Assembly: GCA_020080175.1 (NCBI GenBank)
Contig: JAGHQL010000014.1
Location: forward strand, 161,610-225,609
From: Glutinoglossum americanum
Taxonomy: Eukaryota > Ascomycota > Geoglossomycetes > Geoglossales > Geoglossaceae
Direction of reading: 5' to 3'
DNA: 64,000 nucleotides
Shown here: positions 8,122 to 50,704 of the stretch, piece by piece
Layout: every line of letters begins with the position of its first letter
How positions within the stretch are numbered: position 1 is the first letter of the stretch
Notes under the pieces: generated by a model
Told to the model about the DNA's origin: nothing
The model's database searches: none
Seen by the model: only the letters and a program-made list of their open reading frames with translations
Program-made: the position numbers and the translations under genes

Positions 8122-10397
8122 ATGGCTCCTGACTTTGGCCTTACCCTGAAGCTTACGAGTTTGCCCCTGGAGACCACCGAAAGCGATGTGCGACGTTACC
8201 TCCGAGAGTTCCCCGACATGAAAGACAAGTATATAAAGAAAGTTAGCGAGCCTTGTCCTTACTCTCGCTTGGCTCAAGGCTCTTTGGGTTCGGTCGTGAC
8301 GTTACGAAATCGCGGCATTGCCCAAAAGCTCTACGATCATGTTAGAAGAGATCAGCGGAATTTCCACGCTGAGCGCGGGGGCGGCTATTCGACTGTTGTC
8401 ATTGATTCCGAATTTCTCGATCTAACAACGCTATACAGCTCAACGAAAGGGCCAGGAGGGAAACCAACTGTGGAGTAAGTGTCTCCTGCGGTTTTTTCTC
8501 ACGTGTGTTCTAGGCTAACTACTCCGCCGAGGGTTTTAGTATAATCGGAGTCCATGGCTTGTCAGGTCATGGCTATAATTCCTGGGTCTACCTTGGAGGA
8601 ACTGATAAGGATCGAATAGAAGTGATGTGGCTTAAGGACGTACTACCGGGGATTCTAGAGAACGAAGGGATATACCCAAGGATCATGGTCTATGGCTATC
8701 GATCGAATATTTTCACAAACACGAATGCGGCCAAACTTGTTGAACCCTCTATTAATCTCTACAACTGCTTGAATGCAGCACGGCATGATACCAATCGCCC
8801 GCTGTACTTTTTCGGTCACTCTATTGGGGGAATCATCATTAAACAGGTTCGTCCGCCCGTTCTTTCGCTCCAAATTAGTTCATAGTAGTGATAACTTCTC
8901 GATCAGACTGTTTGCATCATCGATGAAAATGCGGCATCGAAAAGTCACCCCGTGAGAGGCTGCGTGTTTTTTGGTACACCTCATCGCGGCTCAGCGAGCG
9001 CCGAAACTGCCCGTGCTTTTTTGACGCTTTTGGCTCTGTTTACCCTTCGTAACCAAGGAAATGCAAATATAGTAGTAGATATACAAGAGAAGTCGCAGGC
9101 GCTCGCAGACATAAACGGGAAGTTCCTTCAGGTTAGGCATAGGGATAGCATAGGCGTGCTCAGCTGTTTCGAGCAAGTCAATTCTTACAATGGGCAAAAG
9201 GTTTGTTGCAAATAACAGTCGGCATGCATGTATTAGTGGAAAGCTAAATGCTAGGTAGATCGTGACCGAAGACTCAGCACGCCTAGACTTTCCGACTGCC
9301 CTACCACCGTTCCCAATCGATGCAAACCACTCCGACATGGTTAAATTTGCTAGTTCCAGCCATCAGGGATTTGATCAGGTCATTTCAGCGCTTCTGGAGA
9401 TTATGACTCGACCACCACCCAGACTAGTCGTTGCGCCTGCCATTTCCAGGCCCGCCAGGATTCACGACCCTCATGCTGGGCGCAAACGACTCGAAAACAA
9501 GCTCAGGTTCCTCTCGAAGTACGACACTGTCTTTATGATAGATGATTCGACCTCGATGGGGAGCTGGGAAGATGAAAACGATCCCACCAACACGTACTGG
9601 ACGCAAACTAGAGATATCTTCCTGAAGCTAGTACCGCTCGCGATCCAGCACGACCGGGATGGTATAGATATCCAATTCCTAAACGCCACATGGTATAATG
9701 AGGAAAACGTAAAGTGGAAGGCACGCGTCGAGTATCTCTTCAACGAAGTCCAACCCGATGGCACAACGCCCATTGGCTTCGAACTTGAGGGGTATCTAAA
9801 GAATTACCTTAGGCGATTGGAGAAGGACATGGACCTCAAGCCTCTAAATCTGATAGTGATTACTGATGGCGCCCCAGACGACTACGAAGAGATGGAAAAG
9901 GCCATCGTAGGTGCCGCTCAAAAAGTGCAACAGTTGGGCGCTAGAGACCGCCAGATTGGCATACAGTTCGTGCAGATCGGGAATGAGGACGAGGCAACGA
10001 AATTCCTGAAGAGACTAGATGACGACCTAGGGAGGAACAATAAGACTCTAGATGTCAGTAACGATCCACCCATTCACTCTTCCATTTGTCGTGATTTCGA
10101 AACTTGGGCGTACGGTATGCCGCTAACACTAGCTATCCGCAGATTGTGGACACGGTCAAATACGACCCCGACGGTGGAGAGGAAATGATCATGAAAATCC
10201 TCCTCGGCGCCATCAAGGACGAATACGACCACCAACCCGCGGCGAACGGAAACGGAAGTAACGTCGGCAGCCGCCCCGTAGGTCTAGCGAGCACACCCGC
10301 TTTAAGGTCATCGGCCTTCGAGCAGGATTTTAGTGCGTTGGGGTTGACAGAGATGGGGAGCAACAGCCGGAGGCCTACGGGGTTTGGGCAAAGATAG
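8122..10397 (+). CDS. SesB-like alpha/beta hydrolase fused to a von Willebrand A domain
   Basis: Five exons (8122-8474, 8540-8846, 8907-9200, 9259-10053, 10143-10397) give 667 aa. Residues 1-117 form an RRM-like leader (LTLKLTSLPLETTESDVRRY). Residues about 118-360 form an alpha/beta hydrolase of the fungal SesB type: oxyanion loop VHGLSGHG, nucleophile elbow GHSIGG (Ser about 212), FFGTPHRGS, and a late His in ANHSDMVKF (about 342). All expected catalytic elements are present. Residues about 405-600 form a vWA domain with an intact metal site: MIDDSTSM (DxSxS), a Thr in DGTTPIG, and ITDGAPDD. A disordered tail follows. SesB-like domains normally sit in front of NB-ARC or NACHT in fungal NLRs; here the NTPase and repeats are replaced by vWA. 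The last donor is GTCAGT, which is weak, but only it keeps the vWA frame. Role in incompatibility or defence is inferred from the domain family. Confidence 0.85.
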
Positions 10398-11157: not shown

Positions 11158-14100
11158 ATGGACGACAGAGCCGATGCTGGTAGTGGCCATTTTGTTAATA
11201 GTGCCGCTAGCGGCCCTAGTTTTGTGACCTACGAGCCGGGTTATCTGCACGGACGGCTCCCCGGGAAGGGCGTTTGGGGCAGAACGGAGGTTGAGTATGA
11301 TCCACCGGCCAGCACAGCGTGTCTAACATCGCGCTAATTGTGATGAGCCTCATATTAGTGCTATCGGTGTCCCCGCACTTGGAGGAGATCCAATTGAGAC
11401 TTGGAGGTCCAGTTCTCGACACGACGAATCTTACGATGCTGACACACCGGACGAAACCACCAGCACCCAAGCGGCGCTCTTATCGTCAAGCCTGGTATAT
11501 CCTGCGGTGAGCAGGCAATCCATTGGACCGACTAGTCCAATTTGGATAATAAACGATATTCGCAAGGATATCCCGACAGCCCGGGTACTCTTGTATGATC
11601 ATGGGGAGCTTGAAGAAAGCGACAGGTTAAAGGATCTATCCCTTAGGCTTCTTGAGTGCCTTCGTGATTTGCGAAAGCGTGATGTATTACGATTGTTTAG
11701 TGCGCATGAGAGCGAAGAATTCTCACTGATTGGAGTGCTAGGGTGAAAACCGCCCCTTCTTCCTTATATGCCACAGCACCGGAGGCCTTGTGGCAAAATT
11801 TGCCCTGATACTGGCTCATCGGCGGGGGGGTGAGTATAGATCGCTGGCTGCTGACTGCTTTGGAATATCCTTTTTCGGTTAGTGTCGCGGCTGAACACCA
11901 AACACTCAACATAAGACGCTAATATACTTCCAGCAACCCCTCATAGAGGATCGAGTTACCTGTCGCAACCAGCTTTTACAACAAGCATCTGCACAGCTAT
12001 GCGTTTAGAGAGACCACTACCGGAGAGTCTTCGAAGCGAGCTCCAAGTCGGTAGTGAGCTGTTGCGCTCAATGATATCTGAATTCAGACCCCTGGCAGCT
12101 GATTTAAAGGTTTGGACTTTTTACGAGACCGAAGATACAGACTTATCAATCCCATCAACATCTTTGGAAGACGTTCGTTTACTTGCTCCCATAGCCTCGA
12201 TCAAATCAACAATCCTAGATTTGTACAATGAGGTCGACTATCCGTTACCAACGGACCACGTTGGTTGCGCGTCTTTCTCAGGAAAGACCACCCAAACGAA
12301 GGAGGATTACCTTCACCAATTGAAGGAGGCTACCGAGCTCGCACTTAGGCTATCGGGTGTCAAACACAGCGAGCTGGAGCTTAGGGAGAAGGTGAAAGTT
12401 GATATTCATGGGTTCTACATGCGCGGTGCCGGTGAGCCGATAAGACTATGGTCGGCTCATCGGACCCTTCAAGAGTTCAGGCAACTGGGTCCGTCAATGT
12501 GCCTGGAAGAACGCTTGAAAGATATACCGGGGGATCCACGTCCAAACCAAATGCGCAGGGCCACATCCTTGGATAACAGGGCGCCGGGAAACGGAGCAGC
12601 TACGACTCCGAACCAGGCGGCGAGGAGTGCAACACCAAAACTAACTGGTGACGCTTCGGGTCCAAAGCCCCCTTTTGGTGATGCTTCAGCTCGGCGTAGG
12701 TCTCTATCAAGGATTAGAAATCTTATGCCATCTCCAGGGTTCTCCTCACAGAAGAATACCATGCAGCCTCAGGCAGAGATCGCTACAAGCGCGATACCTA
12801 GAGAAACTGTCCCAAGCGTCATTGTTCATCAATCTTCAGACGGCCCAAATGATGGGACACAGGAACCAGCAGCTCCGCAGGAACCCCTACCGGGTCGGAA
12901 GTCCACTGACTCTTCAATTAAATCGGCCTCTTCTGGGGGCATACGCGAGCCTGGAAGTGCTGCACAGGCAGTTTCTGAACCCGACTCGGGAAGCAAGCTA
13001 ACCCCTGTTGGCTTGGGACAGGGCACTGGTGCAAGGACACAACTGCTTCGGTTACCGGGTTCTGAGGCCCTTAAACCCATAGGCGGGTCAGGCAGGAGAG
13101 CAAGTGAGCAAGGACGCACAACTGGGGGGTTCGGCGCACCGCAAGTACCACAGTTTGTCAAGCCAGAGGCTACGAATAGGATATTGACCTGGATACATGT
13201 GCCATTCAATAATCCTGCGTGGGTTTTGGTAAGCCGCTAACTTTGTGGAGGCGGGACTTCTACTAACGGCAACAGGACGTACTGGAAAGGATCGCCATAG
13301 ATGACCCGAAGGACTCATACGAGAAGCTATTGGATTTGCAAAATTGGACATCTAAATATGTTCGGAGGCGCCACTCTGAGCACCACACGTGTTTTCTCAA
13401 GCCAAGTTGCTCGTTTGTATCGTCTGAACAAAGTGGGTTTATCTATAAGCGTAAATGCGATGCTGAGTATGCTGACAGTTTACAAAGGAGCAACGCCGCC
13501 TGGAACGCCAAGTGCCGGTGGTCCTGCCAGCCCGCAGATTTCACTCTGCCTTCCCTACCTGCATTGGGATACCTACAAGCTACTCGTCAAGCGGAGGAAT
13601 CTCGTAAAGTACAGAATGTCGCACGGCCGTTCTCGACCAGTCCCCGAAAATGTTTGTAGAATGGAATTGGAGCACAGGGTAACCTGGGCTTTCCTAGGTC
13701 ACGACCCACCCTTCAACTGCCGTAGGACATTGGACCAATTTGGCTACCCTAACCTCCATGATACAAGGGCCAGAGATGACGACCAAATGCTGTATAAGAT
13801 GACAAAACAACGTTGGAAGAAACTCTTTAGAGATGCCTCTAACATTCCTAAGCCTAGTGCGGAACGAGGTGGAGACGTTTCAGATGATGAGCAGCAGGAT
13901 ACAGATGAGGAGAAAGTAGATGGCGAAGAAGAAAGTATTGATGGTTTATTAGATGGGACTGTACTCATGGTCGACCAGCTTTGGCTGTGGGTTGTCAGCG
14001 ATAGTACGTCGCCTTTGCTAAACCTTACAATCGAGATCTTGCAACTCCCCAGGTGCTAGTTTACTGGCTAATGTCCATAAATCTTCTAGAAACTACGGCT

Positions 14101-15694
14101 ACCTTTTTTCCACGAGTAAGTAATAGCCTAGGTAGCAGCTCTCATTCGGTACCAGCTACCTAACGATCCTACAGAGACAATCTAAACCTATCGAGGGTAG
14201 GTTACATCAACAAGCGGACCTACGAAACAGTATATACAACGAAGTAAATGGCGACCTTGGGTGCCGTTGCGAGAACTCGCTCGACCTAGCAGCCTTAGTG
14301 GCACTACACGCAGTGACGGTATTGTTTGAGCGTTCGTCACATGACGACCTTGAGGTATTTCGAATCTTCGAAGAGTCAATCAGCATACTTGTAAGTTCTA
14401 CATACCTATATAGTCTAGAAGCGACTGCTTACGCCTAACAGATCGAAAAAATGACTAGGTCTTTTAAAGACTTCCGGCTCCAAGGCTTCCGCGACAAACG
14501 CGTAGACTACGACTCCGACAACCACAAAGTAGGCATCAAGGAAAAGCACAAGCGGGAAGGCGAGATGTCGGAGAAGCAGAACCGCGACGACACATCCGCG
14601 ATGTTGGAACTTCGGGACATCGACGATGAGCTTAACACGCTAAAGAGACTCTTCAAACAACAGACTGAAACCATCACGCGGATGCAGGACATTTATCGGG
14701 ATAAGGATAAGGTCAAGCCTGAGTTGTCGGCAAACGGTCTGCCGATTCTAAAAAACGCGCTGGAGAAGCTGGAAGAATACACTGATCAGGTTGATCAAAT
14801 GCTAGAGACCGCAAACAGGACGCGAAAAGATGTACACAGACCACCCAAGTCTTTAGATGTTCGCGAAACTGAAACTGACGACCCACAGTTTGAGAAACTG
14901 TTGTACCTCAAGCAGAGACAAGCCAACGTCGATGAAGCGCGCTTAGCAAGATATCATGCTGATTTAGCAAGCATGCAATCTCGAGCTGTCATGATCTTCA
15001 CCGTAAGTTTTTACCCGTAGGGGCCATAGTAAGCGTACCGTGGCTATATGCTAATCTTAAGACTAGGTGTTCTCAGTGATCTTTGTAAGTCGTGGAACTC
15101 AACTTGGGGAAAAAAGCGCAGAGCAGGAAAGTTAATTAGTATATTTTTTTTATCACAAGCTTCCGCTCACCTTCTTCACGGGGTTATTCGGCATGAACCT
15201 CAGGTAAAAGCAGCCTTTGTGTGAGAAATCGGACATGATGTTAACTAGCCAACTACCCAGGGAGTGGAGCAACACCCCAACAGATACCTCCTGGCACACT
15301 GTCGCCAAACTCGCGAGTAAGTCCGCCCCCTCCCCCCAAAAATGAAATAAAAACTCCTGATCCAACGCAACTAACCACTACCACCACAATAGTACCCATC
15401 TCCTTCCTAATAGTCTTCATAGCCCTCAGCATAGCCCTCAGCACGCGCGTCCGGAAATCCCCCAGAGAAGTCTCCAAAGCCTTCCGCAGTCTTCTAGGCT
15501 GGGTGGGCGGCACGCGCCCGCGCTCTCGCGGCGGCGTGCGGGGTGCGGCTCCTCGGAGGAAGAAGAAGAGGAAGGATTTGGCTTTGGAGGATGATGATTT
15601 TTGGGAGGCGCATGTTGAGGGGCGAGAGAGGAGGTATAGGATTCCGGGGCAGAATCGGAGGGCGGTGGGGAAGAGGAAGGGGGAGGGGCGCTAA
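11158..15694 (+). CDS. SesB-like alpha/beta hydrolase fused to a CorA-like membrane module
   Basis: Thirteen exons (11158-11294, 11359-11683, 11742-11877, 11934-13228, 13276-13432, 13479-14003, 14090-14115, 14175-14390, 14442-15002, 15067-15084, 15160-15203, 15261-15316, 15393-15694) join in frame to 1265 aa. The hydrolase is at residues about 40-290: VPALGGDPIETW in place of the usual HGLGG, nucleophile elbow CHSTGG (Ser about 166), TPHRGS, and TDHVGCASF with the late His. A 250-residue Ser/Pro/Gly-rich linker follows. Then comes the fungal CorA-like region: WIHVPFNNPAWVL, LPYLHWDTYK, DTRARDDDQMLYK, VDQLWLWV, TTATFFPR and a long coiled region. Two membrane helices end it, the first closing with GMN (about 1143-1145), followed by a basic cytoplasmic tail. 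CorA proteins conduct Mg2+ or related ions as pentamers. Here the likely role is an NLR-like trigger coupled to a membrane effector, which is inference. Confidence 0.85.
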
Positions 15695-24014: not shown

Positions 24015-25335
24015 TTACCCAAGCAGGTCGCATAGCTGTATGTTAACTCGATGTTGGAGTCGGTTTCGCACGTTCACGCAGTGACTTTGCCTCCTCTTCC
24101 CTGCCTGCTCATCGTATAGGCCGGTAAGGAATCCTAGCATTTGCAGTGTGTTGGGATGCTTAAGCCCAAGTGTCTTCTTCCGGTAGGTAGACTGGGAAAG
24201 AAATCCGATATAGTCAATGTTTGAAGGCCGTGGGCGTTGTCGAAAATGAGAAGCCAATTGTTGTTACCGTCTCAGGCCAGCCAATTCTTCGTAGCCTTCG
24301 CTATCAGATTTGGAGTATCACTGTCTGGTATGATCTGTCCGGTCTGATTGACCAAGCCGTCCATGTCCAAATGGCGTGCAATCCTGTCGTGAGGTAGAGG
24401 TGACGCCATTGACCTCCTTGCATAGAATTGGATAAGTTGCTGCATGAGACTTAGAAAGCTTCCGATCGTCTCCTGGTGACTCTGTGCATCGCTCTAGATA
24501 ATCGACGTGAAGACGCCTTGGTTTATATAAGCATATTCACGAACAGGCTGAGCCTTACGCATCCCCCCCAGCGCCATATATCACGATGGGTGTGGAATTG
24601 TTCTTGTCACTCTTAACCCCGCCGACAGGGTTGTGGAGGCGCTTTAGGCCTTCTCGTCAAGTAAACTTTGATTTCTGCCATGGCTGAGGTTCAGAGGAAT
24701 ACGATATTCGTTTATCAAATCTTCAGTTCCAAGAGCTGCGGCCGTGGAGGTAATGATTAGTGTATGTAATAGCTATGCTGATTTACGAGTTGAATTTGCG
24801 AATATAATTTGTGAAGAGCTATATTAATAGACTACGCGCTATTAATTTTCTCCTGGCGCACCCAGTTCCCCACAATCCTTTCTTCCGCATCCTTGCACAT
24901 CAAGAGTATATGGTTAGCAGCAGTCTGAAAATCGCCCTCAGAGGAAGTTCTGAATTTCACCATTGTGATATGGCTACTTCTGATTTCGATGGCTTCCGCA
25001 TTTGTGGCTCCAGCAACGATAGCCGATGATTTGGGGACAACCCACTGAGGTATTAGAGTCGCGCTAGATATAGCTCGTGGTGACTCGCCATTGCTGAAAA
25101 ACCTGCTTTGAGTGGCGTTGGGCAAGTCTCGTAGCAGAACTTGTTGAGGAGGCTGGCGCTGATGGCCTTATACTATTCTAACTGGATCTCAAGCCATTTA
25201 GAGTCCCCCCCCCAGGCGCTGCAAGAGGTCGTTGTTGGTGTGCCAGTATATGGATGCCACATCGACTGGCAGTTTCCCCTGGGAACGCCGTTCCCCCCGT
25301 TGAGACCATGTGTGAAGACGAGACTAGGAGGCATT
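24015..25335 (-). pseudogene. Relic of a SesB-hydrolase / NB-ARC / TPR NLR
   Basis: Reading the minus strand from right to left gives: an oxyanion-type VFTHGLNGG (about 25300); SKWLEIQLE followed by a stop and then YKAISASLL with FCYET (about 25140-25210); VVPKSSAIVAGATNAEAIEI and HITMVKF (about 24930-25060), the diagnostic end of a SesB-like hydrolase; GGMRKAQPVREYAYINQGVF (about 24510-24570), a damaged NB-ARC P-loop with GKT turned into RKA; WLLIFDNA (about 24230-24260), the Walker B strand; and KKTLGLKHPNTLQM (about 24120-24190), a kinesin-light-chain type TPR. The blocks are in the canonical order but separated by stops and frameshifts. The middle of the hydrolase, including the nucleophile elbow, is missing. 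This is the remains of a classical SesB-NLR. Confidence 0.7.
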
Positions 25336-26275
25336 GTCAAGCTAGTCAGGGCGCGGCAGGCACCAAACTGCGGTTGGCCACTTGCCACACCGCAGGTCCC
25401 TTTTCAAGGTCTACGGGGACTTTCAAGCCGAAGGCTTCCTCATCTTCACTCTGCAGACCTACCGGGGGTGGGGTGGAGGCGTTAGGTTCGATAACTCATC
25501 CGATGTTTATCACGTCTCTTCTAATTGCTGTTGCTTTTTCTTTTTAAAATTTAAGCCCTTGAACATGATTTCGGCGGGTTCATATGAGGTAAGAGCTAGA
25601 GTAGTAGGCCAGAGCGCGCGTTGACTAGGGATTGTTCGGCTCGAGTCGTCTGGTACCTGCTCGCTTAATAGCCTTAACAGACTATTTAAATGACGGGGTT
25701 AGTTACGCCGCTTTTAACTTGATAGAGAGTAGCTCAAAGCGGCCTACGGAGGCTGCGACAAAAGTGATAGTAATTGGTCGTTTTAAAAATTTCCAGTCAA
25801 GTTGAATGCCTAAATTACGGCTTCGAAGCAGGAACTGCCGCGAATTGCCCTAGGTTTCGGTTTTGGGCGGGTATATTGCTCCCAAGTATTCCGGCCCAGT
25901 TGCAAAGCAACCCGCTCAGTATTTGAGATTTATATCATGCTGTGCCATGTGTTACAGTCAATGATTTTTTGGCACACCGCTGGTTGAAGCTCTCAGCTAT
26001 GCGTGCACTTAATACCACGATATGATGTGTTGTCGGGAGGATTTTCCAGGTATGAGTTCCGTAGGAAGATTCCTTATCATAGCGGCGTCCTCTAAGAACC
26101 AGGTTTTGTGTACAGTATTCTACATGCGAACTATAGATGGGGTAGGTCTCCTTACGGAGGGGTCTGGAGGAAGGGCTCTATGGACCAGAGGCGGCAAACT
26201 TGAATTTGCCCGATCCCGGGTGATCACTAAGGCCTCCCACATTTTGCACTTTCCTTGTAGCCACAAGTAGTTGCC
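25336..26275. other. Intergenic, no gene seen
   Basis: Open frames here are short and motif-free. The left end may include further 5' remains of the decayed NLR. Confidence 0.45.
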
Positions 26276-31151: not shown

Positions 31152-34100
31152 ATGAGACCCACCGAACACAACTTCAACCACCATCAGAACATCAACCGTC
31201 TCGCAATGAAGAAGGGGTCAGCTATCTTGCCAGAGATGTTCAAGTCAACTGCGTAGGTGCCCTACCGCAAAACGAAGACTCGGTTCCTAGCTTCGCTGAC
31301 CCGCGCGCTAACCATGCAGTCCAAGGAGCCCTCCTCCATACCAAAAACTCTCGGAGTATCGAAGCCCTCTCCTAGACGAGGCCATGAACCGCTATCGTTC
31401 TGAACTCAAAGATGGTGGTGACTTTATCCTTGACGGCGAGGGCGTTGAAGGACTTCTCAATCAAGCTCGGGCTCTCGAGCCCAGGTTATCCCGCAGAACT
31501 GATTCTTCCTCCGCATCGCTTACACGAATCGAACCGATGCTCTCTCATATGAACAACTTTGCTGCTATATTAGCGGTCTGCTTTGGGGCCGACGCAAAGG
31601 TTGCTGCGCTAGTATGGGGAAGCATTAAAGTCATTCTTCGTGTAAGTACTCGTGATTTCTCTGCGGTTGTTTCTTGTAATTGGCTGGTAGACTGATCCCT
31701 CACCATAGCTAGCGTCTCCGACGCAAGACATCCTGAGCGACGTGCTTGATATGCTGGAAGAGATAAGTTGGTCTCTTCCACGTTTCACCACGTACGAGCA
31801 AACATTGCCTATGGATGAATCCTTCGAATCCTCATTGGTGGCGGCTTACACGGAAATGACCTGTTTCTGCGCACGTACCATCAACTTCTTTCGCAGTCAC
31901 CCACATTGTAAATTACCCCATGAAAGCCAATTTCATCTCACTTCTTATTAACATTGTCAAAGACCCATTACTTCGGAAGGGATGGCCTCAGCTCAGCGAC
32001 GACTTCCAAAGAACAATCACGCGACTCAAGCGTCTATCGCAGATTGTTGAGACGGAAGCTGAGGCCGCGCGTATGCGGCTTGAAGGCGAGAGACATACCG
32101 AGGTCTTGTCAGTAATGAAGGCGTTTGGAGATAAGCCAAAGAAGGACGTTTTACCATGTTACTACTTACCGCCTAGTATCGGTGAAAAGCTTATCGGGAG
32201 GGAGAATGAGCTCAGCCAAGTAGCTGATGCCCTTGACCCGAAGGAGGGTAACCCCCAGAGGAAATCTCTGGCCGTGTGCGGCATGGGTGGAGTTGGAAAG
32301 ACTACGATCGCTCGGCGATACGCTAACATCGCCCGCGACCGATACGATGCGGTGTTCTGGATTTCCGCAGACAACATGACCAAGATGACTCAGAACTTTC
32401 TAGAGGTCGCCCAGAAGCTTGAGCTGGTTCCTGGGAATCGCAAAACCGAAGATGCTGTTGCAGCAATGGCCAAGGTGAAATCGTGGCTTGCAGATACAAG
32501 TGAGTTCCCAAACCCCCTATGGACCACCTCTCAGACTAATACCGATGCAGGCTGTCGCTGGCTTGTGGTTTTTGATAACGCAGATGATCTGGAGATTTTG
32601 ACATGTGCCTGGCCCCCTGGCATATCCGGCTCCATCCTCCTAACGACCCGTGATTTTACCGCTGGCTTCAGTCCCGCAGCGACTGGCCTGACCATTCAGC
32701 CGTTCGATGACGGAGTAGCCTGTGCTGCATTTCTTGAATTACTAGGTCAGTCGAGTCCTACTCAACCGAACATAGATCTAGCCAAAAAAATCACCCATGA
32801 TCTCGGAGGCCTTCCTCTAGCCCTCCGACAAATCAGCGGATTTATCCTGCAGCAGCGCCTAGCCCTCAAGGACTTCCTCCCCCTCTACGAACGCAACGCC
32901 GCAAGGATCCACACGAAGAAAGCCGGGCTGAGTGACTACCAACACACCCTAAGCACAGTGTGGGATCTTGCACTTAGTAGCCTTACAGGCCATGCAAGCT
33001 CCCTGCAGAAACTCCTCGCGTTCTTTGATCCTGATCAGATAGCCGAGGAGATCCTGACGGCGGACGGACCGTCCAAAGTTGGTGGAGACGAATTCGATTT
33101 TCTGACGGACGAAATGGAGTGAGTAACATCCCCAATTATTCCCACGCCAGGGGACCAAAACAAAAACTAACGCTACTCAGCTTTCTTGATGCGAAAGAAG
33201 TGCTTCTTCGAGCCGCATTAGTCGACAGATCTGAGGGTAACGCAAACCTCTCTGTCCACCGCCTAGTGCAAACGACAGTTATCAGGGGATTATCTACCAC
33301 GGATAGAGAAAGATATTTCAATCAGGCTATTAACCTACTAGTGACTATTTTCCCGTGCGCTTGGAAGGACGGCACAGGGTACAAGTACACGTTCACGTCT
33401 TGGGACAAGTGCGAGATGTGTTTACCCCACGTCCACTTTCTAGTTGCTCAAGCAGCCAAATACAAAATCCGCGCCAGCGACCGGGCTATATTCGCAGAGC
33501 TGCTGATGCGTTGCTCATGGTAAGCGCTCTAGTTTCTAGAGGCGAACTGGCCAATCCCTTAACAACCTTCTGATAGGTACCTCTATGAATGCGAACGCTG
33601 CCACCAAGCCCTCCCTCTCATAACTGTTGCGCTCCGGGAAATAACTGACCAACTCTCTCTGGCCTATACCATAGCTACTGATATCCATGGGCTCCTTACA
33701 CTAGATACTAATCACCCCCGCGAAGCCGCGCCCTACTTTCTCTCTTGCCTCAAAACCCAAGAGGCAACCCTCCCTCCCAATAGCCCGTTCATCGCCACAA
33801 GCTACAGCCATGTCTCGCTAGCCTACACCGAGCTTCGGGAATGGGAGAAAGCTGCCGAGTACCAGCAGAAAGCCATGGATATCCGAATCGCGATCAATAG
33901 TCCAGTGATCGGGAATTCATATTCTAATATGTCTAGCATACTCCTTGGAATGGGAAAGCCGGATGAGGCGGAGGAGATGTTGATGAGGTGTCCGTCGCTC
34001 AAGGACATGACCGATGAGAGTTTCTTGAGGACAGATAACCCCCGGTTCTCCAGGTATGCTTACCTTACTCTCCTCCATCTTAAGCTCTAGTGAGTAGTAG

Positions 34101-34638
34101 GGGGTGGTAGTCGCCCAGTACTGACCAGCGAGCCAGCGACATGGTCCTCCTTAGCCGGATCCGAGTCCACCAATCCCGCTACGACGATGCATTACGCCTT
34201 CGCTCAAAGGCCCTCGCCTTCCGCCAAAAGACCTATGGTGACAAATACAAGACTTGCGACTCTCTATACCAAATCGCCGATCTCCTCCATAGGAGAGGTG
34301 ATTCGGCCTCCGCAGTGTAACCACCCACCTTCCTCCCCACAGAAGGCACCCGTCTTTATACTAGCCAACTAACGTTTGTCTCATCCCGCAGCAACCTCAT
34401 CGAGAAGAGCATCGCATTTCTAGAGAACCTAACAGAGCCAGAAGGTTACCAGGCACGTGCATATTTCAAATTGTGGCAGATATATTCTGGGTTGGGAAAG
34501 GACCTAGAGACGGAGAAACTGTATAAGGGTAGGGCGATCGAATTGCTTTCTAAATGTCGCGGGGAACCCGGCGGCGGTCCCGGGGAGGACCTGGAGGAGG
34601 AGGCGTTCAATTCGCTCGTGCCGTGGATGTTATGGTAG
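31152..34638 (+). CDS. NB-ARC / TPR NLR-like protein
   Basis: Nine exons (31152-31252, 31320-31641, 31709-31907, 31963-32499, 32551-33118, 33181-33519, 33577-34053, 34137-34316, 34392-34638) join in phase to 989 aa. Residues about 40-250 form the helical N-terminal region typical of fungal STAND proteins (DEAMNRYRSELKDGGDF, AALVWGSIKVILR). The NB-ARC follows: GRENEL, P-loop GMGGVGKTT (about 314-322), WLVVFDNADD (Walker B), LLTTRD and GGLPLALRQI. A winged-helix-like region with FLDAKEVLLRAALVD and VHRLVQ comes next. The C-terminal 350 residues are TPR-like (YSHVSLAYTELREWEKAAEY, MSSILLGMGKPDEAEEML, HQSRYDDALRLRSKALAFR). All NTPase motifs are intact. Such proteins oligomerise on ligand sensing in fungal non-self recognition. 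The intron at 32500-32550 is 51 bp, in frame and stop-free. The first exon and start are the least certain part. Confidence 0.88.
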
Positions 34639-35435: not shown

Positions 35436-37274
35436 TTACACCAGTACAATCTCCTTCAATTCCCGCTCAGTCCCACCCAGAAGCTCAAATACCTCTCCAT
35501 CCATAATGCCATGAACGTATGAATCCCCGAGGATAGCGTAGCATCTCCTTGAGCACAGCTTTATCGCCGCCCTAATCGCCCGCGGGAAGTCCGCGCCTTG
35601 CATCAAAAATCCAAAGGCCTTCCGCAACTGGCTCGCTCGAGATAGAGGGCGTATGATGTACGGCACGCTACCGCCAGCCAGGACGACGACCAAATCCCCC
35701 TCCTCGCATTTCTGCGGCGCAAACCCAAAGTACCCTTTTTCCGTCGTGAAAAATCGTCTGCCGTTGGTCGCCGTTTCGGTGTCTAGTATGATGTGATTGG
35801 TTTCGTTATCCCAGAGCACAGGGTTAGGGTAAGGAGACGCTGTGAAGGCCGCCCATCTGGAGTATCTCGATAGGTCCGTTGAGCCTTTGAGGCGTCGGCT
35901 GGACCGGCCGGAGTCCTTCAGGGACGTCTCGATGCCTCCGCACAACGTGTGCCAAAATGCCACTAGCCGCGAATCGCTGGTTTGGCAGTATAGTCCTTCA
36001 GACGAGTTGTCGAGGCCGGCAAGCCTGTGCAGCTCTTTTAGGGACCCCGGCTCTTCGTTGTATTCGAGTAGAGACGTATCGCCGGTGGCTGTGACCGCGT
36101 CGAATATGACGCCTCGTGTAGCAAGCATCCCGTGAGAAATGAGCTTGACTTCAGCAGGCATGTCGAGAGAGGCGGAGAACCATTTAAGATTGGCCAGCCG
36201 ATTCTCGTAGACTTCGTCCCATGCAAATGACCCGGTCCAATTCGGTATGAATGATGGCAGTTTGGGGTTTTGATGTTCAAACAGATGGCTGAGGAATTCG
36301 AGTTTTCCGGTTCGCTCGACGGACTTGATTGCGACAGCTTCGCATACTTGCTCTGGGGAGAGCGTGTAATCGGGCTCCACAAGATTAGCATATTCCCCGG
36401 TCCCTAAGCCTAGCATGCCGTATACCCTGTCCCGAGGATCAGTAACCTCTCGTTTGCAAAAGGTTGCTATTCCACCGAGTACGCTATACGAGTTGTCTCT
36501 AGTCTTACTAATGAAGTCCAATCTAGCTGGCCGTGTGAAGGATTCCGTCAGGCTCAATTCAGATTCTGGATGGGGATAGTCTAATACGTTTTGCGCGCAG
36601 CACCGATCTTTGTGACTCCAAAAGTTTTCCTTGGCCATACACATTGTCTCACGAGTGACCAAACTTCTGGAACATTGGAAAACCAGCTTTCGGGCCAGGA
36701 TGAATTCTTGAACTGTCCATGTGCGCTTCCACCAAGGCAGGTCGAAGAGGCGGATAACGTGTCCAGAAAGCTCCATAGAATCTAAATCTAGTCCGTTCAC
36801 ACTAATACTTGGGTTTAGCGACGGGTCCAAATGGAGAGTTTCATCCTCCCCCAATCTTCGCAAGAGCTCCATTGCCATATCGCTACCATGCCAGCCTTCG
36901 CCCAGCCAAACGACAACTTGAAAAGCTTGTCCATAAATGTAACTCATGAGGGAGACCTGATACGTTCTCTCTCTGAGATCAGACTGGTTAATACAGAGGG
37001 CATCGACCCAGAGAGCCCGCTCCTGGTCTTGAAGCTGCAAATGCCTCAGAGCCGAGTGGAGGTTTGCAGTGATGGGAACTGAGCGTCCCTCAACCTCGAG
37101 AGAGCGAGAATCGTTGATATCTCCCCACACATATGACAGAGCCTCGTAGTGAGGTTTATCGTCAAGCAAGACGACGGTGAACCGACATCTGATCGCATCG
37201 TCGTCGGATGGGGCTGGGCTGAGGTGCATCAGCCGAATGAAGTTTTGGTCGGTGTCCAGTGGAGTGTAAGCCAT
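35436..37274 (-). CDS. HET domain (heterokaryon incompatibility) protein
   Basis: A single exon of 612 aa from the ATG at 37274; the open frame extends 45 codons further upstream, but MAYTPLDTDQNFIRLMHLSP is the usual HET protein start. The HET domain occupies residues about 40-200: HYEALSYVWGD, LWVDALCINQSDLRERTYQV, MSYIYGQAFQVVVWLGE, then LPWWKRTWTVQEFILA. The C-terminal half has the common FFTTEKGYFGFAPQKCEEGD and DLVVVLAGGSVPYIIRP elements and ends with CYAILGDSYVHGIMDGEVF. HET proteins act in the cytosol to trigger regulated cell death after non-self fusion. The gene is intact and lies next to an NLR on the opposite strand, a frequent combination in accessory fungal regions. Confidence 0.92.
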   Translation of the reverse strand: MAYTPLDTDQNFIRLMHLSPAPSDDDAIRCRFTVVLLDDKPHYEALSYVWGDINDSRSLEVEGRSVPITANLHSALRHLQLQDQERALWVDALCINQSDLRERTYQVSLMSYIYGQAFQVVVWLGEGWHGSDMAMELLRRLGEDETLHLDPSLNPSISVNGLDLDSMELSGHVIRLFDLPWWKRTWTVQEFILARKLVFQCSRSLVTRETMCMAKENFWSHKDRCCAQNVLDYPHPESELSLTESFTRPARLDFISKTRDNSYSVLGGIATFCKREVTDPRDRVYGMLGLGTGEYANLVEPDYTLSPEQVCEAVAIKSVERTGKLEFLSHLFEHQNPKLPSFIPNWTGSFAWDEVYENRLANLKWFSASLDMPAEVKLISHGMLATRGVIFDAVTATGDTSLLEYNEEPGSLKELHRLAGLDNSSEGLYCQTSDSRLVAFWHTLCGGIETSLKDSGRSSRRLKGSTDLSRYSRWAAFTASPYPNPVLWDNETNHIILDTETATNGRRFFTTEKGYFGFAPQKCEEGDLVVVLAGGSVPYIIRPLSRASQLRKAFGFLMQGADFPRAIRAAIKLCSRRCYAILGDSYVHGIMDGEVFELLGGTERELKEIVLV

Positions 37275-37728
37275 GGCGCATATTCGAGCCCTCGAAGAAT
37301 ATGAATTGAAATCGCCAAGAGGCGCGGGAATAGTTTTTATATCATGATTGAAGTTGAGCAGGGAAGCTAGAGGCGAGAAAAGATGGACAGGCAAAGCTGC
37401 CCCTGCCAAGCCCGTGACTAATAGCTCTCTCGCTAATCCCCCGCTAAATTAAGCACCACAACCCCGATACCACCGGCTCACTCCCGAGGAATTGTGCATG
37501 CATCGCAGCGTCAAAACCAAAGCCCGCGACTCCATCCCTAGGATTGCTGGTGCATAAGCTAACCAGCCACGCAGTGTTGGTGCCCGGCCTCTGGGGGAAA
37601 AGAGGGACCCTCACCGTGGAGCCGCAGCATGCCAGGACCCAAGCACTCACGGTTACTACTTTTTATAGATTAGAAATTACCACGACCACGTCTAGATATA
37701 TACACACACACCCACCCATCCCCTCGCC
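37275..37728. other. Upstream region of the HET gene
   Basis: About 450 bp between two minus-strand genes. No gene is seen. It should contain the HET promoter and the 3' end of the next gene. Confidence 0.45.
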
Positions 37729-43645: not shown

Positions 43646-44806
43646 CTGCCTGCATTCTCACTTAAGGTTTTCCAATGGTTGTGCTCAATAATATTAATCT
43701 GGGTGGTTTTAATCCAGCTCTATGCCGCATTAACGGTGGAAGCTCAGCCGCACTGAAGTAGGAATATCACGTGATTAACACGCTCCACAGCGACCAATAA
43801 AGAATGGAGGACGACCCCACAGTGCAAAGGAAAATGCCCCAAGAAATGGCTAGCGTGGTGTGGGTTAAAAGTATGTGCATAGAGGCATGCCTCATCTATA
43901 TCCTTGCAGGTGAGCCGATCCCTAGCGCCTGATTTTAAGATAACCATCAGCTACCAGGTAAACGAGCTATCCACGAACTTCCGGAGAGCTTCCTCATCGC
44001 TAGTACTAAGTTAGTTTAATGTCATAAGCCTAGTAGGGGCAGCTTTATTAATGAGGCTTATCCCTATTCTAATTCAACGTCCTTCTACCCACTGATTGAA
44101 CCTTTGCCTCGGTATATAGGAGGTAGCTAGTGCTAAGATAGAGGCAGTGCTGAGAGCATAGCTGCACACACACCGACGCTCCCACGCTAGTGGAGATGCT
44201 ACCGAGAAACTTTGTTGGTTAGAGCACTATAGCAAAGTTCACCATGCAGGGTGTGTGTAGTTATGCTGGCTCTGCCAGGCATGTACTCGTGCGGTACGTA
44301 ATGGCAGCGGTTGACTAAATGCTGTCGGACTGAGTGTTCGACTGGTAGGCTGTTATACCTCCTGGATGTTACACTCAAGTTACTCAACCAACGGACTCAA
44401 TGTGCGATTCTGGCCTACCACTATCAGCAATAACGGTAATTATTAACTGCGGGATTTGCTCGTTGAATGCAATTGGGGTGATCGCGAATTCTATAACACT
44501 ACGGGTCTTATTTACCGGGCATGTGGTAGCTCCTAGATGACTAATCATGATGGGGTATAAGAAGGCGTTTCAGAACACTTGCCCTCCACATCTCTTCAAA
44601 TTGTCACTGCGAGGCCGGCCTCCTGTTGTTGGAAGCAAGCCGATGTTAGCTCTGGTGTTAATTATGCCATGACGCTAGTGCCCCAGCCTCGCCCTAGCGT
44701 TAACACTAGGTCTATTTATTCTGTCCATCTCCTACTTCTCATGTATTCTAACCACACTACGTAATACAAGACTTTCTGCTTAAATGCTCTGTTTCTCAAC
44801 ACCAGT
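43646..44806. other. Intergenic region with a dispersed repeat
   Basis: No gene is seen. It contains the second copy of the repeat first found at 2.5 kb (about 44028-44120). Confidence 0.5.
44025..44125 (+). repeat. Dispersed repeat, copy 2
   Basis: GGGGCAGCTTTATTAA and the TTCTACC...TTGAACCTTTGCCTC end match the copy at about 2475-2575 in the same orientation. The copies lie 41.5 kb apart and differ by scattered single-base changes. Confidence 0.6.
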
Positions 44807-45559
44807 ATGAACGCCAACTCGAAAGCCAACTTCTTTTCTCTCCCCCCCGAGATTCGGGCCGAAATATACGAGCTCTCTCTAGTCTTACTAAAAGATACCA
44901 TCTGGGTTAAATCCCCACTCAAAAAGGGCGAAGCCGAGGACCCCGACATTGACTCTTTCTTCAATGATCCTATCCGACGCCTCTCGCCTGCCCTCCTGCG
45001 TGTTAGCCGCCAGATCAACTTGGAAGCCACGCCCATATTCTACAGAAAGAACAGCTTCGGCTTCATCGGCGACAGCCCCTACACTGATCTGCGCGTCTTC
45101 CTCCATGAGATCGGGGAAGCGAACCGAGCCTGCTTGGGCCGGCTGGATATCAGGCTGCCAATAATAAAGAAAGTGTGGGTATCTCCCGTTGACGGGGCTA
45201 GCTTTGATCCCAAGGATACGGAGCAGTGGCCTCAGTTCAACACGTCTCTTGTACAGCGGTATTGCTTCACAGGTGAGGGGGTTGAAGAGGCGCTGCAGGG
45301 CCTCGAGCTGCGGTGCCCCAATCTCAAGGGGATCTGGTTGCGGGTGGGGTTCGATGATAAGATTGGCGCTGAGAAGTTGGAGGCGTTAGAACGGCTGCGA
45401 CGCATTGGAGAGGTGCGGGTTGTTGTCCTCGAGTTGCCGTATGTCGAAGGGAACGCATATATAAATGCCACCCGCGGCGCACTCGATATCCTTGAGGGGT
45501 GGGGCTGGACCATATGTCGCAATAATGGGGATTCACCTGAGAAGTGGTTTCTCTTTTAA
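44807..45559 (+). CDS. LPPEIR-start (F-box/2EXR-like) protein, paralogue A
   Basis: A single exon of 250 aa. It opens with FFSLPPEIRAEIYELSLVLL, the short helical motif that starts fungal F-box/2EXR-type proteins. Then come LSPALLRVSRQINLEATPIF, FYRKNSFGFIGD, CPNLKGIWLRVGFDDKI and VVVLELPYVEGNAYIN, ending KWFLF. The order and spacing of these blocks are shared with two minus-strand genes in the window (48607-49383, 49913-50704), including the WVN/KSP stretch, the NxFGF(I/A)G element and the K(W/Y)FL(F/Y) terminus. The role is unknown. If F-box-like, it would recruit a substrate to an SCF ubiquitin ligase, but no substrate-binding repeat is visible. Confidence 0.75.
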   Translation: MNANSKANFFSLPPEIRAEIYELSLVLLKDTIWVKSPLKKGEAEDPDIDSFFNDPIRRLSPALLRVSRQINLEATPIFYRKNSFGFIGDSPYTDLRVFLHEIGEANRACLGRLDIRLPIIKKVWVSPVDGASFDPKDTEQWPQFNTSLVQRYCFTGEGVEEALQGLELRCPNLKGIWLRVGFDDKIGAEKLEALERLRRIGEVRVVVLELPYVEGNAYINATRGALDILEGWGWTICRNNGDSPEKWFLF

Positions 45560-48606: not shown

Positions 48607-49383
48607 CTAATATAAAAACCACTTCTCTTCTGGGCCAGCCTCGTCGCGATACTCTGTCCACCCCCACCCGCCCGTCAAGAGGGCCAACGCATCCTCCGTA
48701 ATGCTCGCATACTTATCACCAAGATTCGGCAACTCGAGGTAAACGACCCTCAGTGACTTGATGAGTTGGAACTCCGACAGCGCCACAACGCTCTGCATCG
48801 TTATCTTCTCGTCCAACCCAATGCGCAGCCAGAGGCCCCAGAGGCCGGGGCATTCATTCGCCAAGCGGTATAGTGCGCTTTTTAGGCCCTTGGCCGAGAG
48901 GTGGTGACACCTGGTAACTGACTGCTTTTCCTTGGACTTCCACCATTGGAACATATCCACCACCGAACCGTCATACTCACTCACCCACCCCATCTTGATC
49001 TTCGGAATGTTGATGTCCACTCTTGCCAAACACTCTCGGTTCGACTTCCCAATCCTATCCAGGAAGGAATTGAGATGTTGATATGCGTACTTACCGGCGA
49101 AACCGAACGCGTTTTTGCTATAGAAGATTGTTGTCGCTTCTGTGTGGATCCGGCGGTTCACGAGGAGAAGAGCTGGCGAGAGTCCCAAGATCGCGCTGTT
49201 GAAGAATGCATCGGCGCTCTTGGCGACATGGCATTGGGCGCCGTCGAAGGAGGTTGTGAAGATGGAACCTTCGCCTCTGCCGCATGGTGGAGGGTTTACC
49301 CAGACGGTGTCGGGGGCTATGAGGCAGAGTTCATAAATCTCGAGACGGATTTCGGGAGACAGGGAGAAGAAGGTGGCAGTCAT
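48607..49383 (-). CDS. LPPEIR-start (F-box/2EXR-like) protein, paralogue B
   Basis: A single exon of 258 aa. It starts MTATFFSLSPEIRLEIYELC and continues with APDTVWVNPP, LSPALLLVNRRIHTEATTIF, NAFGFAGKYAYQHL, CPGLWGLWLRIGLDEKI, VYLELPNLGDKYASI and GWTEYRDEAGPEEKWFLY. The blocks are collinear with the genes at 44807 and 49913. It differs from paralogue A mainly in the middle (a WWKSKEKQSVTRC insertion). It is transcribed in the same direction as the next paralogue 530 bp upstream, consistent with a tandem duplication. Function unknown. Confidence 0.75.
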   Translation of the reverse strand: MTATFFSLSPEIRLEIYELCLIAPDTVWVNPPPCGRGEGSIFTTSFDGAQCHVAKSADAFFNSAILGLSPALLLVNRRIHTEATTIFYSKNAFGFAGKYAYQHLNSFLDRIGKSNRECLARVDINIPKIKMGWVSEYDGSVVDMFQWWKSKEKQSVTRCHHLSAKGLKSALYRLANECPGLWGLWLRIGLDEKITMQSVVALSEFQLIKSLRVVYLELPNLGDKYASITEDALALLTGGWGWTEYRDEAGPEEKWFLY

Positions 49384-49912
49384 ATTGGGAGCTTTTCAGC
49401 AATGGGTTAGAATATTTGGTATAGATGGAGGTAAACTTTGGGACTTGGTTTGTGGGTGCGTGTTAATTGGGAGGTGAAATGTGGAGGATGGAGGGCCAAA
49501 CCTGAGAGAACAACTTTTCTATCCTTATATCCGAGTAGCGGTCCCGTAGCTAGTATGGCTTTGTTGGTGCCAACTGCGAATTCGTCGGAACAGGAACAGA
49601 GTTAGTCTCCAATAACACTATCCATACCATTCCTACCCAGCACCATACAGCAAGTTCTACCATAGACGTCTACCTGAACTCCAACATAGAAGAGGAAGAG
49701 CGAGCAAATGCAACAAAGTCACTATGAAGTGCTCATTCTCCCTCCTAGACCCCGTGCATGTTAAGGTCATTGCGAGTGGTGAAATTTATTGAAGAACTGC
49801 TCCCATCACTTCACCCGAACGTTCTGAGTTTGTGCATAACACCACAGCGCAACACCACCAATCCAAACCTAAGAAAAACCATTTGGCCTGCCCATGCCCC
49901 GAAACGAAGAAT
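49384..49912. other. Intergenic between paralogues B and C
   Basis: Promoter region of paralogue B and 3' end of paralogue C; nothing else is seen. Confidence 0.5.
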
Positions 49913-50704
49913 CTAAAACAGAAAATACTTCTCAGTTCCCACCTCATCATCTGAAAAATCCGCCCACTCCCACTCCCTCAAAACAGCAAACGCATCCTCC
50001 TTGATATTCGCATATTGGTTCCCCTCGACATGCGGCACTTCGAGGATGAAAACCAGCACGGACTTCATCCGTCGAAACCGCTTCAACGCCACGGTCTTCT
50101 CCACCGTGATCAGCTCGTCGAACGGAATGCGCAGCCAGATACCCCAGAGATTCGGACACTGTGCTTCTATGAGCCGGAGGGATTCTTCGACGCCCTCGCC
50201 TGCGAGGTGGTAGCGCAGGGCGAGCCGCTTAGGGCGCCTGGTCCAGGATTTGTCGTCTTTTGGGTTGAAAACGGTAGTAGGTCTACCCTTTCTGACAGAC
50301 ACCCAGCCCCTCTGTATGGTCGGAAGCTTGATTTCTATTCGTTCTAAACGGGAGCGGTTCGCCCTTCCGATTTGCCATAGGAATCTGAGGAGGTCCGTGT
50401 ATTGGGCGTCGCCGATAAAACCGAACACATTTTTGCTGTAGAGAATTTCTGAGCTTTCCTTGTGGATCTTTCGGTTTACCAGTAGGAGGGCGGTTGAGAG
50501 GCCTCGGGTGGGTCCGTTGAAATAAAAGTCAGCGCGACTGAAGACGTCGCATCGTTTACCGTTGATAGCGGCTTTGACGCTAGGTTTTTTGACTGCGCCC
50601 TTCGAGATAGGTGAATTTACCCAGACTGTGTCTTCGTCGTAGAGAACGAGCATGTAGATTTCCCGGCGGATCTCGAGCGGGAGCGAAAAGAGGCGAGACG
50701 TCAT
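49913..50704 (-). CDS. LPPEIR-start (F-box/2EXR-like) protein, paralogue C
   Basis: A single exon of 263 aa. It begins MTSRLFSLPLEIRREIYMLV with DEDTVWVNSPISKGAVKKP, then LSTALLLVNRKIHKESSEIL, KNVFGFIGDAQYTDLLRFLW, CPNLWGIWLRIPFDELI, FILEVPHVEGNQYANI and EKYFLF. It shares the FIGD and HVEGNxYxN elements with paralogue A and the DxVWVNxP element with B. This suggests three old copies of one gene, with A inverted relative to B and C. Function unknown. Confidence 0.75.
   Translation of the reverse strand: MTSRLFSLPLEIRREIYMLVLYDEDTVWVNSPISKGAVKKPSVKAAINGKRCDVFSRADFYFNGPTRGLSTALLLVNRKIHKESSEILYSKNVFGFIGDAQYTDLLRFLWQIGRANRSRLERIEIKLPTIQRGWVSVRKGRPTTVFNPKDDKSWTRRPKRLALRYHLAGEGVEESLRLIEAQCPNLWGIWLRIPFDELITVEKTVALKRFRRMKSVLVFILEVPHVEGNQYANIKEDAFAVLREWEWADFSDDEVGTEKYFLF

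What the first reader, a model, noticed from the sequence alone, without database searches (positions are those of the whole stretch)
8122..10397. SesB-like hydrolase joined to a complete von Willebrand A domain
In fungal NLRs the SesB-like alpha/beta hydrolase normally precedes NB-ARC or NACHT. Here one gene has all hydrolase motifs (GHSIGG, TPHRGS, NHSDMVKF) followed by a vWA domain with an intact DxSxS...T...D metal site, and no NTPase. A metal-dependent protein-binding domain in the receptor position would make a recognition protein without an oligomerising NTPase. I do not recall a characterised protein with this layout, but I cannot search databases.
Basis: partly seen in the sequence, partly recalled or inferred. 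Interest (0 to 1): 0.75.

Follow-up and report, generated by a model that had tools for sequence, protein, structure and literature searches.

The report
Fungal lipase fused to Ter-type vWA
A real fungal gene joins a lipase-like enzyme of the kind used in fungal immune receptors to a metal-binding domain whose relatives here are in viruses and cyanobacteria, without the usual ATP-driven switch, so it looks like an unusual stand-alone effector whose trigger is unknown.

Summary
Five exons at 8122-10397 (+) encode one 667-residue protein; each exon scores as coding only in its predicted frame. The front is a SesB-like serine hydrolase with an inferred triad (S212, D323, H342). The back is a vWA domain with intact MIDAS residues. 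One exon carries both the hydrolase's His and the vWA core, so these are not two genes. No P-loop is present.

The vWA's relatives found here are small stand-alone proteins of cyanobacterial plasmids (34%, E 6e-22) and viral contigs, mostly TerF-like and in a minority beside TerC, plus giant-virus proteins. Its model is good (pLDDT 84.8). Six of 11 plasmid relatives of the hydrolase lie in NB-ARC, AAA or ABC-three-component loci.

SesB effectors without an NTPase are already known; they carry amyloid motifs, not found here. Best reading: an NTPase-free lipid-hydrolase effector gated or placed by a TerF-like vWA. Function is inferred. No fungal collection could be searched, so rarity is untested; a giant-virus 'carboxylesterase' may share the layout.

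The parts
8122..8474 (+). exon 1: start codon and N-terminal region, residues 1-117, no family found
   Evidence: first in-frame ATG after the upstream stop; TATAAA-like stretch about 90 bases upstream; no Pfam hit in this part, weak PHROG hit only, E 0.11
8475..8539 (+). intron 1 (GTAAGT...AG)
8540..8846 (+). exon 2: first part of SesB-like hydrolase with nucleophile motif GHSIGG (S212, codon 8820-8822)
8847..8906 (+). intron 2
   Evidence: stops in frame if read through
8907..9200 (+). exon 3: hydrolase continued, FFGTPHRGS
9201..9258 (+). intron 3
9259..10053 (+). exon 4: end of hydrolase with inferred D323 and H342 (NHSDMVKF from 9325), linker, and the vWA core; this exon shows the fusion
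9517..10214 (+). vWA domain, residues 405-607 (interrupted by intron 4); MIDAS D413, S415, S417, T488, D521
10054..10142 (+). intron 4
10143..10397 (+). exon 5: C-terminal end of the vWA (IVDTV...LLGAI), tail without a PP or sigma amyloid motif, stop

Best explanation
The gene makes a 667-residue protein with no transmembrane-like stretch. Its SesB-like serine hydrolase (most likely a membrane-lipid or phospholipid esterase) is the output. Its C-terminal TerF-like vWA takes the place held by NB-ARC/NACHT plus repeats in SesB-type NLRs, or by the amyloid motif in stand-alone SesB effectors. I propose that the vWA binds a divalent metal and through it a partner (a membrane-linked protein, or an ATPase supplied in trans), which brings the hydrolase to its membrane substrate or releases it, giving lipid breakdown as a stress, conflict or cell-death response. 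Shown: gene model by sequence, both domains, intact catalytic and metal-site residues, no P-loop, kinship of the vWA with TerF-like proteins, and kinship of the hydrolase with bacterial conflict-type proteins. Inferred: lipid substrate, metal binding, partner, trigger, and any role in cell death.
For: Gene and fusion. Triad columns shared with three plasmid relatives, one labelled NB-ARC with WD40 repeats (Gloeothece), one with AAA_35 (Nostoc), one Enterobacter protein with DUF676. An Opitutales relative has an AAA domain above cut-off in the same protein. Four of 11 plasmid hits belong to ABC-three-component loci, one of the four by label only. A PADLOC candidate-defence profile matches residues 203-304 (E 9.8e-4). 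vWA: 3 cyanobacterial plasmid proteins at 32-34% over 99%, which pass Pfam VWA, VWA_2 and vWA-TerF-like cut-offs. 12 loci in viral contigs from one scan and 56 of 60 stretches found by a family signature carry this vWA. All 11 members of alignment A4, the window's own included, match phrog_5359; 10 of 11 match vWA-TerF-like at E <= 0.01. TerC in 6 of 44 neighbouring ORFs, one TerD and one TerB. AF2 model pLDDT 84.8, pTM 0.81, vWA folds as top PDB matches. The region also holds NB-ARC, TPR and HET ORFs.
Against: No expression, biochemical or genetic evidence. The nearest NLR-type ORFs start more than 20 kb away and share no convincing similarity with this protein's tail, so no partner is identified. 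HET and NLR genes are common in such fungi (recalled), so neighbourhood is weak evidence. TerC neighbours are a minority: 5 of 65 non-duplicate vWA stretches by tblastn with one TerC query, and giant-virus vWA proteins match about as well as the Ter-type ones, so the Ter link of this copy is uncertain. Five of 11 plasmid relatives of the hydrolase show no NTPase or ABC-three-component link. The hydrolase fold was not modelled.
Confidence: 0.45

Rival explanations
1. Housekeeping or stress-related lipid esterase (SERAC1/PGAP1/DUF676-like) in which the vWA is only a scaffold or targeting domain; no part in immunity or cell death.
For: Weak Pfam similarity is to general esterase families (DUF676, Hydrolase_4, Thioesterase). 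SesB-like domains are related to SERAC1, a phospholipid esterase of human metabolism (passage of PMC4986451). Housekeeping-type ORFs also lie in this window (M49 peptidase, glutamine synthetase).
Against: Seven of the 12 bacterial relatives (11 plasmid records and one Opitutales genome) are in NTPase-bearing or ABC-three-component loci, and the vWA relatives sit on plasmids and viral contigs; both collections are biased towards mobile DNA, so this is only suggestive.
Confidence: 0.3
2. Effector arm of a vWA-ATPase system: an AAA+ ATPase encoded elsewhere acts on the vWA in trans, as in bacterial MoxR-vWA conflict systems, where effector and vWA share a polypeptide and the ATPase is separate.
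For: Effector plus vWA in one polypeptide with a separate MoxR ATPase is the described layout of those systems (passages of PMC8195603; PMC7159879, which also links alpha/beta-hydrolases to them).
Against: In those systems effectors are typically C-terminal to the vWA; here the effector is N-terminal. No MoxR-type gene is annotated within 6 kb of the 3 cyanobacterial vWA genes (gene tables incomplete), and no MoxR-type family is among the Pfam matches of 44 neighbouring ORFs, where TerC recurs. No whole genome is held for the window.
Confidence: 0.15
3. Two adjacent genes misread as one.
Against: Exon 4 (9259-10053) is one open frame holding the end of the hydrolase with its inferred Asp and His and the vWA core, with the best coding score of the five exons. 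Without it the hydrolase would lack D323 and H342.
Confidence: 0.02
4. Chance product of domain shuffling, or a decaying gene with no present function.
For: The region may hold remnants: a SesB-like fragment with no intact gene recognised around it lies at 24835-25403 (-).
Against: All five exons are open with gene-like codon use, and the catalytic and MIDAS positions are kept.
Confidence: 0.08

Closest known systems
SesB-like / NB-ARC or NACHT / repeat NLRs of ascomycetes (e.g. Podospora Pa_2_10340, Pa_6_7270; named in PMC4986451)
   Same: N-terminal SesB-like alpha/beta hydrolase (by motif; the SesB motif set is recalled, and no fungal SesB sequence was in hand to align)
   Different: No NTPase and no repeats; a vWA follows instead
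Stand-alone SesB effectors with amyloid motif (SESB of Nectria haematococca, SBP of Chaetomium globosum)
   Same: SesB-like hydrolase without its own NTPase (passages)
   Different: No PP or sigma motif found in this protein, no adjacent NLR; vWA in its place. Other amyloid-motif families were not tested
TerF-like vWA proteins / phrog_5359 of viral contigs and cyanobacterial plasmids
   Same: Whole vWA domain, 27-35% identity, similar DIVDT-type C-terminal end
   Different: The 62 distinct vWA ORFs measured are stand-alone, 150-323 aa stop to stop, some cut by the end of the stretch; none shows the hydrolase motifs
Bacterial SesB-like hydrolases in STAND-type (NB-ARC with WD40; AAA_35) and ABC-three-component loci
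   Same: Same triad columns and TPHxGS block in the three aligned
   Different: An NTPase in the same protein or next gene; none of the 10 fetched stretches holds this vWA
Terrestrivirus A0A3G4ZKR9, named 'Carboxylesterase', 594 aa
   Same: Contains a vWA that matches the window's model (TM 0.73, 24% identity); the name suggests a hydrolase in the same protein
   Different: Sequence not in hand, so the hydrolase and the order of the parts could not be checked
MoxR-vWA ternary conflict systems
   Same: vWA and effector in one polypeptide (passages of PMC8195603)
   Different: Effector on the other side of the vWA; no MoxR ATPase seen; TerF-like vWA

Membership tests
SesB-like alpha/beta hydrolase | nucleophile GHSxGG, TPHxGS block, acid and His near the end (Ser-Asp-His) | tested here: met
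   H98 S99 G101 G102, T131 P132 H133 G135 S136, D210 and H229 of the segment (residue 1 = 114) are invariant with three bacterial relatives
SesB-like alpha/beta hydrolase | significant profile match to a hydrolase family | tested here: inconclusive
   DUF676 13.2 bits against cut-off 20.3; relatives L006 and L007 pass one hydrolase family each (LCAT, DUF676)
Fungal NLR (NOD-like receptor) | central NB-ARC or NACHT with P-loop | tested here: not met
   no NTPase family, no Walker A motif
Fungal NLR (NOD-like receptor) | C-terminal ANK, TPR or WD repeats | tested here: not met
   none
Amyloid-signalled SesB effector | PP or sigma motif shared with an adjacent NLR | tested here: not met
   no match to PP, sigma A or sigma B patterns (nor to a rough HET-s pattern of mine); tail has no match elsewhere in the window better than E 0.9. 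Other amyloid-motif families not tested
vWA domain | vWA fold | tested here: met
   pLDDT 84.8; 78 PDB matches at E <= 0.001, the 50 listed at TM 0.40-0.60 of the query, led by vWA and I-domain entries
vWA domain | MIDAS residues DxSxS...T...D | tested here: met
   D413, S415, S417, T488, D521, invariant or nearly so in 11 rows
TerF-like vWA (Pfam PF10138) | match above the curated cut-off | tested here: not met
   20.4 bits against 29.4 for the window; the 3 cyanobacterial relatives pass. I therefore say TerF-like relative, not member
Ter system | TerC, TerD or TerB genes nearby | tested here: inconclusive
   none among 29 distinct window ORFs scanned in Pfam, a part of the window only; seen near some viral-contig relatives
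MoxR-vWA system | MoxR AAA+ ATPase partner | not testable with these tools
   no genome held for the window

The most novel reading that the evidence does not exclude
A fungal cell-death or antiviral effector in which a TerF-like, metal-dependent vWA of phage/bacterial (and giant-virus) kinship replaces the NOD switch of a SesB receptor: an NTPase-free innate effector built from two prokaryotic conflict modules, with a counterpart in a giant virus.
Probability: 0.2. Interest if true: 0.75.

Novelty: new variant of a known kind. Interest (0 to 1): 0.5.

Why it matters
If the effector reading is right, the SesB output module of fungal NLRs can be run by a third type of controller besides the NOD switch and amyloid templating, and TerF-like vWA proteins of viruses and bacteria would have a eukaryotic relative with a testable output (lipid hydrolysis). 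It also makes the question of what such fungal vWA domains do directly testable, by mutating one metal site and one catalytic serine in a single protein.

Tried and rejected
Single-sequence AF2 of exon 4 gave pLDDT 36.8 and was not used. phmmer of the whole protein and of the hydrolase against PDB found nothing, and of the vWA one chance-level hit; profiles A2, A3 and A4 did match vWA or esterase chains. NCBIfam: one chance-level hit. Viral-contig scan with the whole protein: no match. Viral-contig scan for FFGTPHRGS coding DNA: 0 stretches. A3 in viral contigs: 2 weak hydrolase loci, not pursued. A4 in viral contigs: 13 loci, 12 of them on the contigs and one new weak one. The genome-contig scan used a two-sequence hydrolase alignment: 53 stretches matched a pattern and 1 was confirmed. 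vWA search of that genome: no match, which shows nothing by itself. Whole genome of the window: not held. pdb_via: not available. The 6 weak Streptomyces phage hits of the vWA were not examined.

Considered and rejected: two-gene reading (exon 4), amyloid-signalled effector (no PP or sigma motif). Integrin-type recognition ancestry is not favoured, because the closest kin found are TerF-like and giant-virus proteins, although integrin I-domains and other vWA domains match the fold at a distance. The idea that residues 1-117 form an RRM/ferredoxin-like domain comes only from my reading of the sequence and was not tested. That this vWA type occurs as stand-alone proteins in other fungi is recalled, from no call.

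Literature: ten searches answered. I saw no paper in their listings or in the passages read that describes a SesB-like hydrolase fused to vWA. The listings were capped at 6 to 20 papers, papers were seen as passages found by term and not read whole, supplements were not read, and most subscription journals are not in the library.

Correction of my own selection: of 105 neighbouring ORFs listed, 46 are at least 150 aa; I scanned 44 of these, and two (L094:6993-7451 and L100:6559-7014) were left out by oversight.

Full report
WHAT IS THERE. Reading the + strand of 8122-10397 and joining five exons gives one 667-residue protein with no internal stop; all four introns are short and GT-AG. I trained a codon score on five other ORFs of the window. 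Each of the five exons scores positive in its predicted frame and negative in the two others, and the spliced coding sequence scores 0.135 against -0.36 and -0.35 in the other forward frames and -0.12 to -0.40 on the reverse strand. The start at 8122 is the first in-frame ATG after the upstream stop. There is no transmembrane-like stretch (best 19-residue mean 1.3) and no Walker A motif. The decisive point for the fusion is exon 4 (9259-10053): one open frame holds the tail of the hydrolase, with inferred D323 and H342, and the core of the vWA domain.

THE HYDROLASE. Pfam sees it only weakly (DUF7379 E 0.009, DUF676 E 0.064); a PADLOC candidate-defence profile matches residues 203-304 at E 9.8e-4. 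With tblastn the segment finds 11 of 72,556 plasmid records at E <= 1e-3. In alignment A3 with three of these, the H, S and Gs of GHSxGG, the TPH and GS of TPHxGS, the DS of IVTEDS and the H of NHSDMVKF are invariant columns, which gives an inferred triad S212-D323-H342. By label or fetched neighbourhood the 11 records are: one protein labelled NB-ARC, with WD40 repeats in Pfam (NB-ARC is not among the 25 of 71 families shown there), one with AAA_35, three labelled ABC-three-component (two of them fetched), one directly beside such genes, and five others: one unannotated stretch, two records with the same hypothetical protein, one labelled alpha/beta hydrolase and a 1373-residue hypothetical protein with DUF676 as its only match above cut-off. 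I fetched 9 of the 11; H12 and H19 were not fetched. A further relative, from an Opitutales genome, has an AAA domain above cut-off in the same protein. None of these 10 stretches contains the vWA by tblastn. A profile of A3 matches esterase and lipase chains of the PDB at E 0.003.

THE vWA. Whole-protein Pfam E is 0.005, below the cut-off; the isolated domain gives 2.6e-4 for VWA and 6.5e-4 for vWA-TerF-like, still below their cut-offs. tblastn finds three cyanobacterial plasmid proteins (Calothrix, Synechocystis, Cylindrospermopsis) at 32-34% over 99% of the domain, E 6e-22 to 3e-16, which pass Pfam VWA_2, VWA and vWA-TerF-like. In phage records there are only 6 weak hits of 50,697. A scan of viral contigs with the four-row alignment gave 12 loci, two of them partial matches. 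A DNA signature for F-x-Q-[IV]-G-x11-L-D-D-x-L gave 60 stretches, of which 56 carry the family by tblastn at E <= 1e-3. In A4 (window plus 10 viral-contig relatives, 27-33% identity) the invariant or nearly invariant columns include all five MIDAS positions; all 11 members match phrog_5359 and 10 of 11 match vWA-TerF-like at E <= 0.01. AF2 on A4 gives pLDDT 84.8 and pTM 0.81. Foldseek returns 78 PDB matches at E <= 0.001; the 50 listed have TM 0.40-0.60 of the query and are led by vWA and I-domains (TRAP, CMG2, inter-alpha-inhibitor, BON1, proteasome subunit, integrins). These TM values are moderate.

WHERE THAT vWA COMES FROM. I listed 105 ORFs next to 59 distinct vWA genes of viral contigs and scanned 44 of the 46 that are at least 150 aa long. 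By Pfam, TerC (6 of 44) and an HNH family (2 of 44) are the only recurrent families, with one TerD and one TerB; other neighbours are phage-type replication and nuclease genes. With one TerC query, 5 of 65 non-duplicate vWA stretches have TerC. This is a minority signal, but it agrees with the TerF-like profile. The Ter system is described as a phage and xenobiotic resistance network in which the TerF vWA protein belongs to components forming sub-membrane structures (passage of PMC7824862). The 62 distinct vWA ORFs measured are stand-alone (150-323 residues stop to stop, some cut by the end of the stretch), and none shows hydrolase motifs.

A POSSIBLE PRECEDENT. In the library of viral structure predictions the four best matches are giant-virus VWFA proteins (Satyrvirus, Terrestrivirus, Yasminevirus; TM 0.78-0.85, 30-36% identity), so giant viruses are as close to the fungal domain as the Ter-type relatives. 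Rank 7 is a 594-residue Terrestrivirus protein named 'Carboxylesterase' with a vWA matching at TM 0.73 and 24% identity. If the name is right, hydrolase plus vWA also exists in a giant virus. Its sequence was not in hand. This counts against a claim of uniqueness and for the layout being functional.

COMPARISON WITH KNOWN SYSTEMS. SesB-like domains are among the commonest N-terminal domains of ascomycete NLRs (passages of PMC4986451, PMC9815663, PMC12258605), and five STAND genes with a SesB-like domain are reported as up-regulated in Podospora incompatibility (passage of PMC3689799). They also occur without an NTPase as SESB and SBP, proposed to be activated through amyloid motifs shared with a neighbouring NLR (passages of PMC3321046 and PMC5485727). 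Here the PP and sigma patterns given in PMC3321046 are absent, and the tail has no match elsewhere in the window better than E 0.9; other amyloid-motif families were not tested. A vWA is listed among Podospora NLR domains (figure legend in PMC12881547). So the parts are known; the pairing is what is unusual. Its frequency in fungi cannot be tested here because no fungal collection is searchable.

MECHANISM. Most likely the hydrolase is the output and the vWA, by metal-dependent binding, controls where or when it acts. The two main sub-models are membrane placement (Ter-like) and an ATPase acting in trans (MoxR-vWA-like). The main rival is an ordinary lipid esterase with a scaffold domain. The neighbourhood (NB-ARC, DUF7779 and TPR ORFs at 31860-34087, HET ORF at 35439-37448) fits a conflict role but is weak evidence.

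VERDICT. Observation confirmed; interpretation partly supported and refined: the second domain is TerF-like, and stand-alone SesB effectors are not new. A new variant of a known kind, moderately interesting.

Noticed in passing
11158-15690 (+): A second, different alpha/beta hydrolase gene directly downstream (ICHSTGG, TPHRGSS; 22% identical in the pairwise alignment), apparently reading into a coiled-coil-like region and a CorA-like end (LPLTFFTGLFGMN, then a hydrophobic stretch; the GMN motif is recalled): another hydrolase with a non-NTPase partner. Exon joins after 13659 were not settled, and Pfam did not detect CorA in the one C-terminal ORF scanned.
   Followed up: partly
24835-25403 (-): Fragment resembling the end of another SesB-like hydrolase (HITMVKF followed by SSEGDFQTA) with no intact gene recognised around it and no Pfam hit; may be a remnant.
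   Followed up: partly
31312-34638 (+): NB-ARC, DUF7779 and TPR ORFs, apparently one NLR-type gene; the one upstream ORF scanned matched no Pfam family.
   Followed up: partly
35439-37448 (-): HET-domain ORF (E 2.8e-33).
   Followed up: no
44765-45556 (+), 48610-49395 (-), 49916-50761 (-): Three 2EXR/DUF7730-type ORFs within 6 kb (the middle one below both cut-offs), perhaps a small local expansion.
   Followed up: no
L041-L100, signature positions as listed: The signature F-x-Q-[IV]-G-x11-L-D-D-x-L picks out a vWA family of viral contigs (the A4 members match phrog_5359, function unknown in PHROGs) in 56 of 60 stretches, some beside TerC: it could be annotated as a Ter-type vWA.
   Followed up: partly
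BFVD A0A3G4ZKR9: Giant-virus protein named carboxylesterase that contains the same vWA fold; possible hydrolase-vWA fusion outside fungi.
   Followed up: partly
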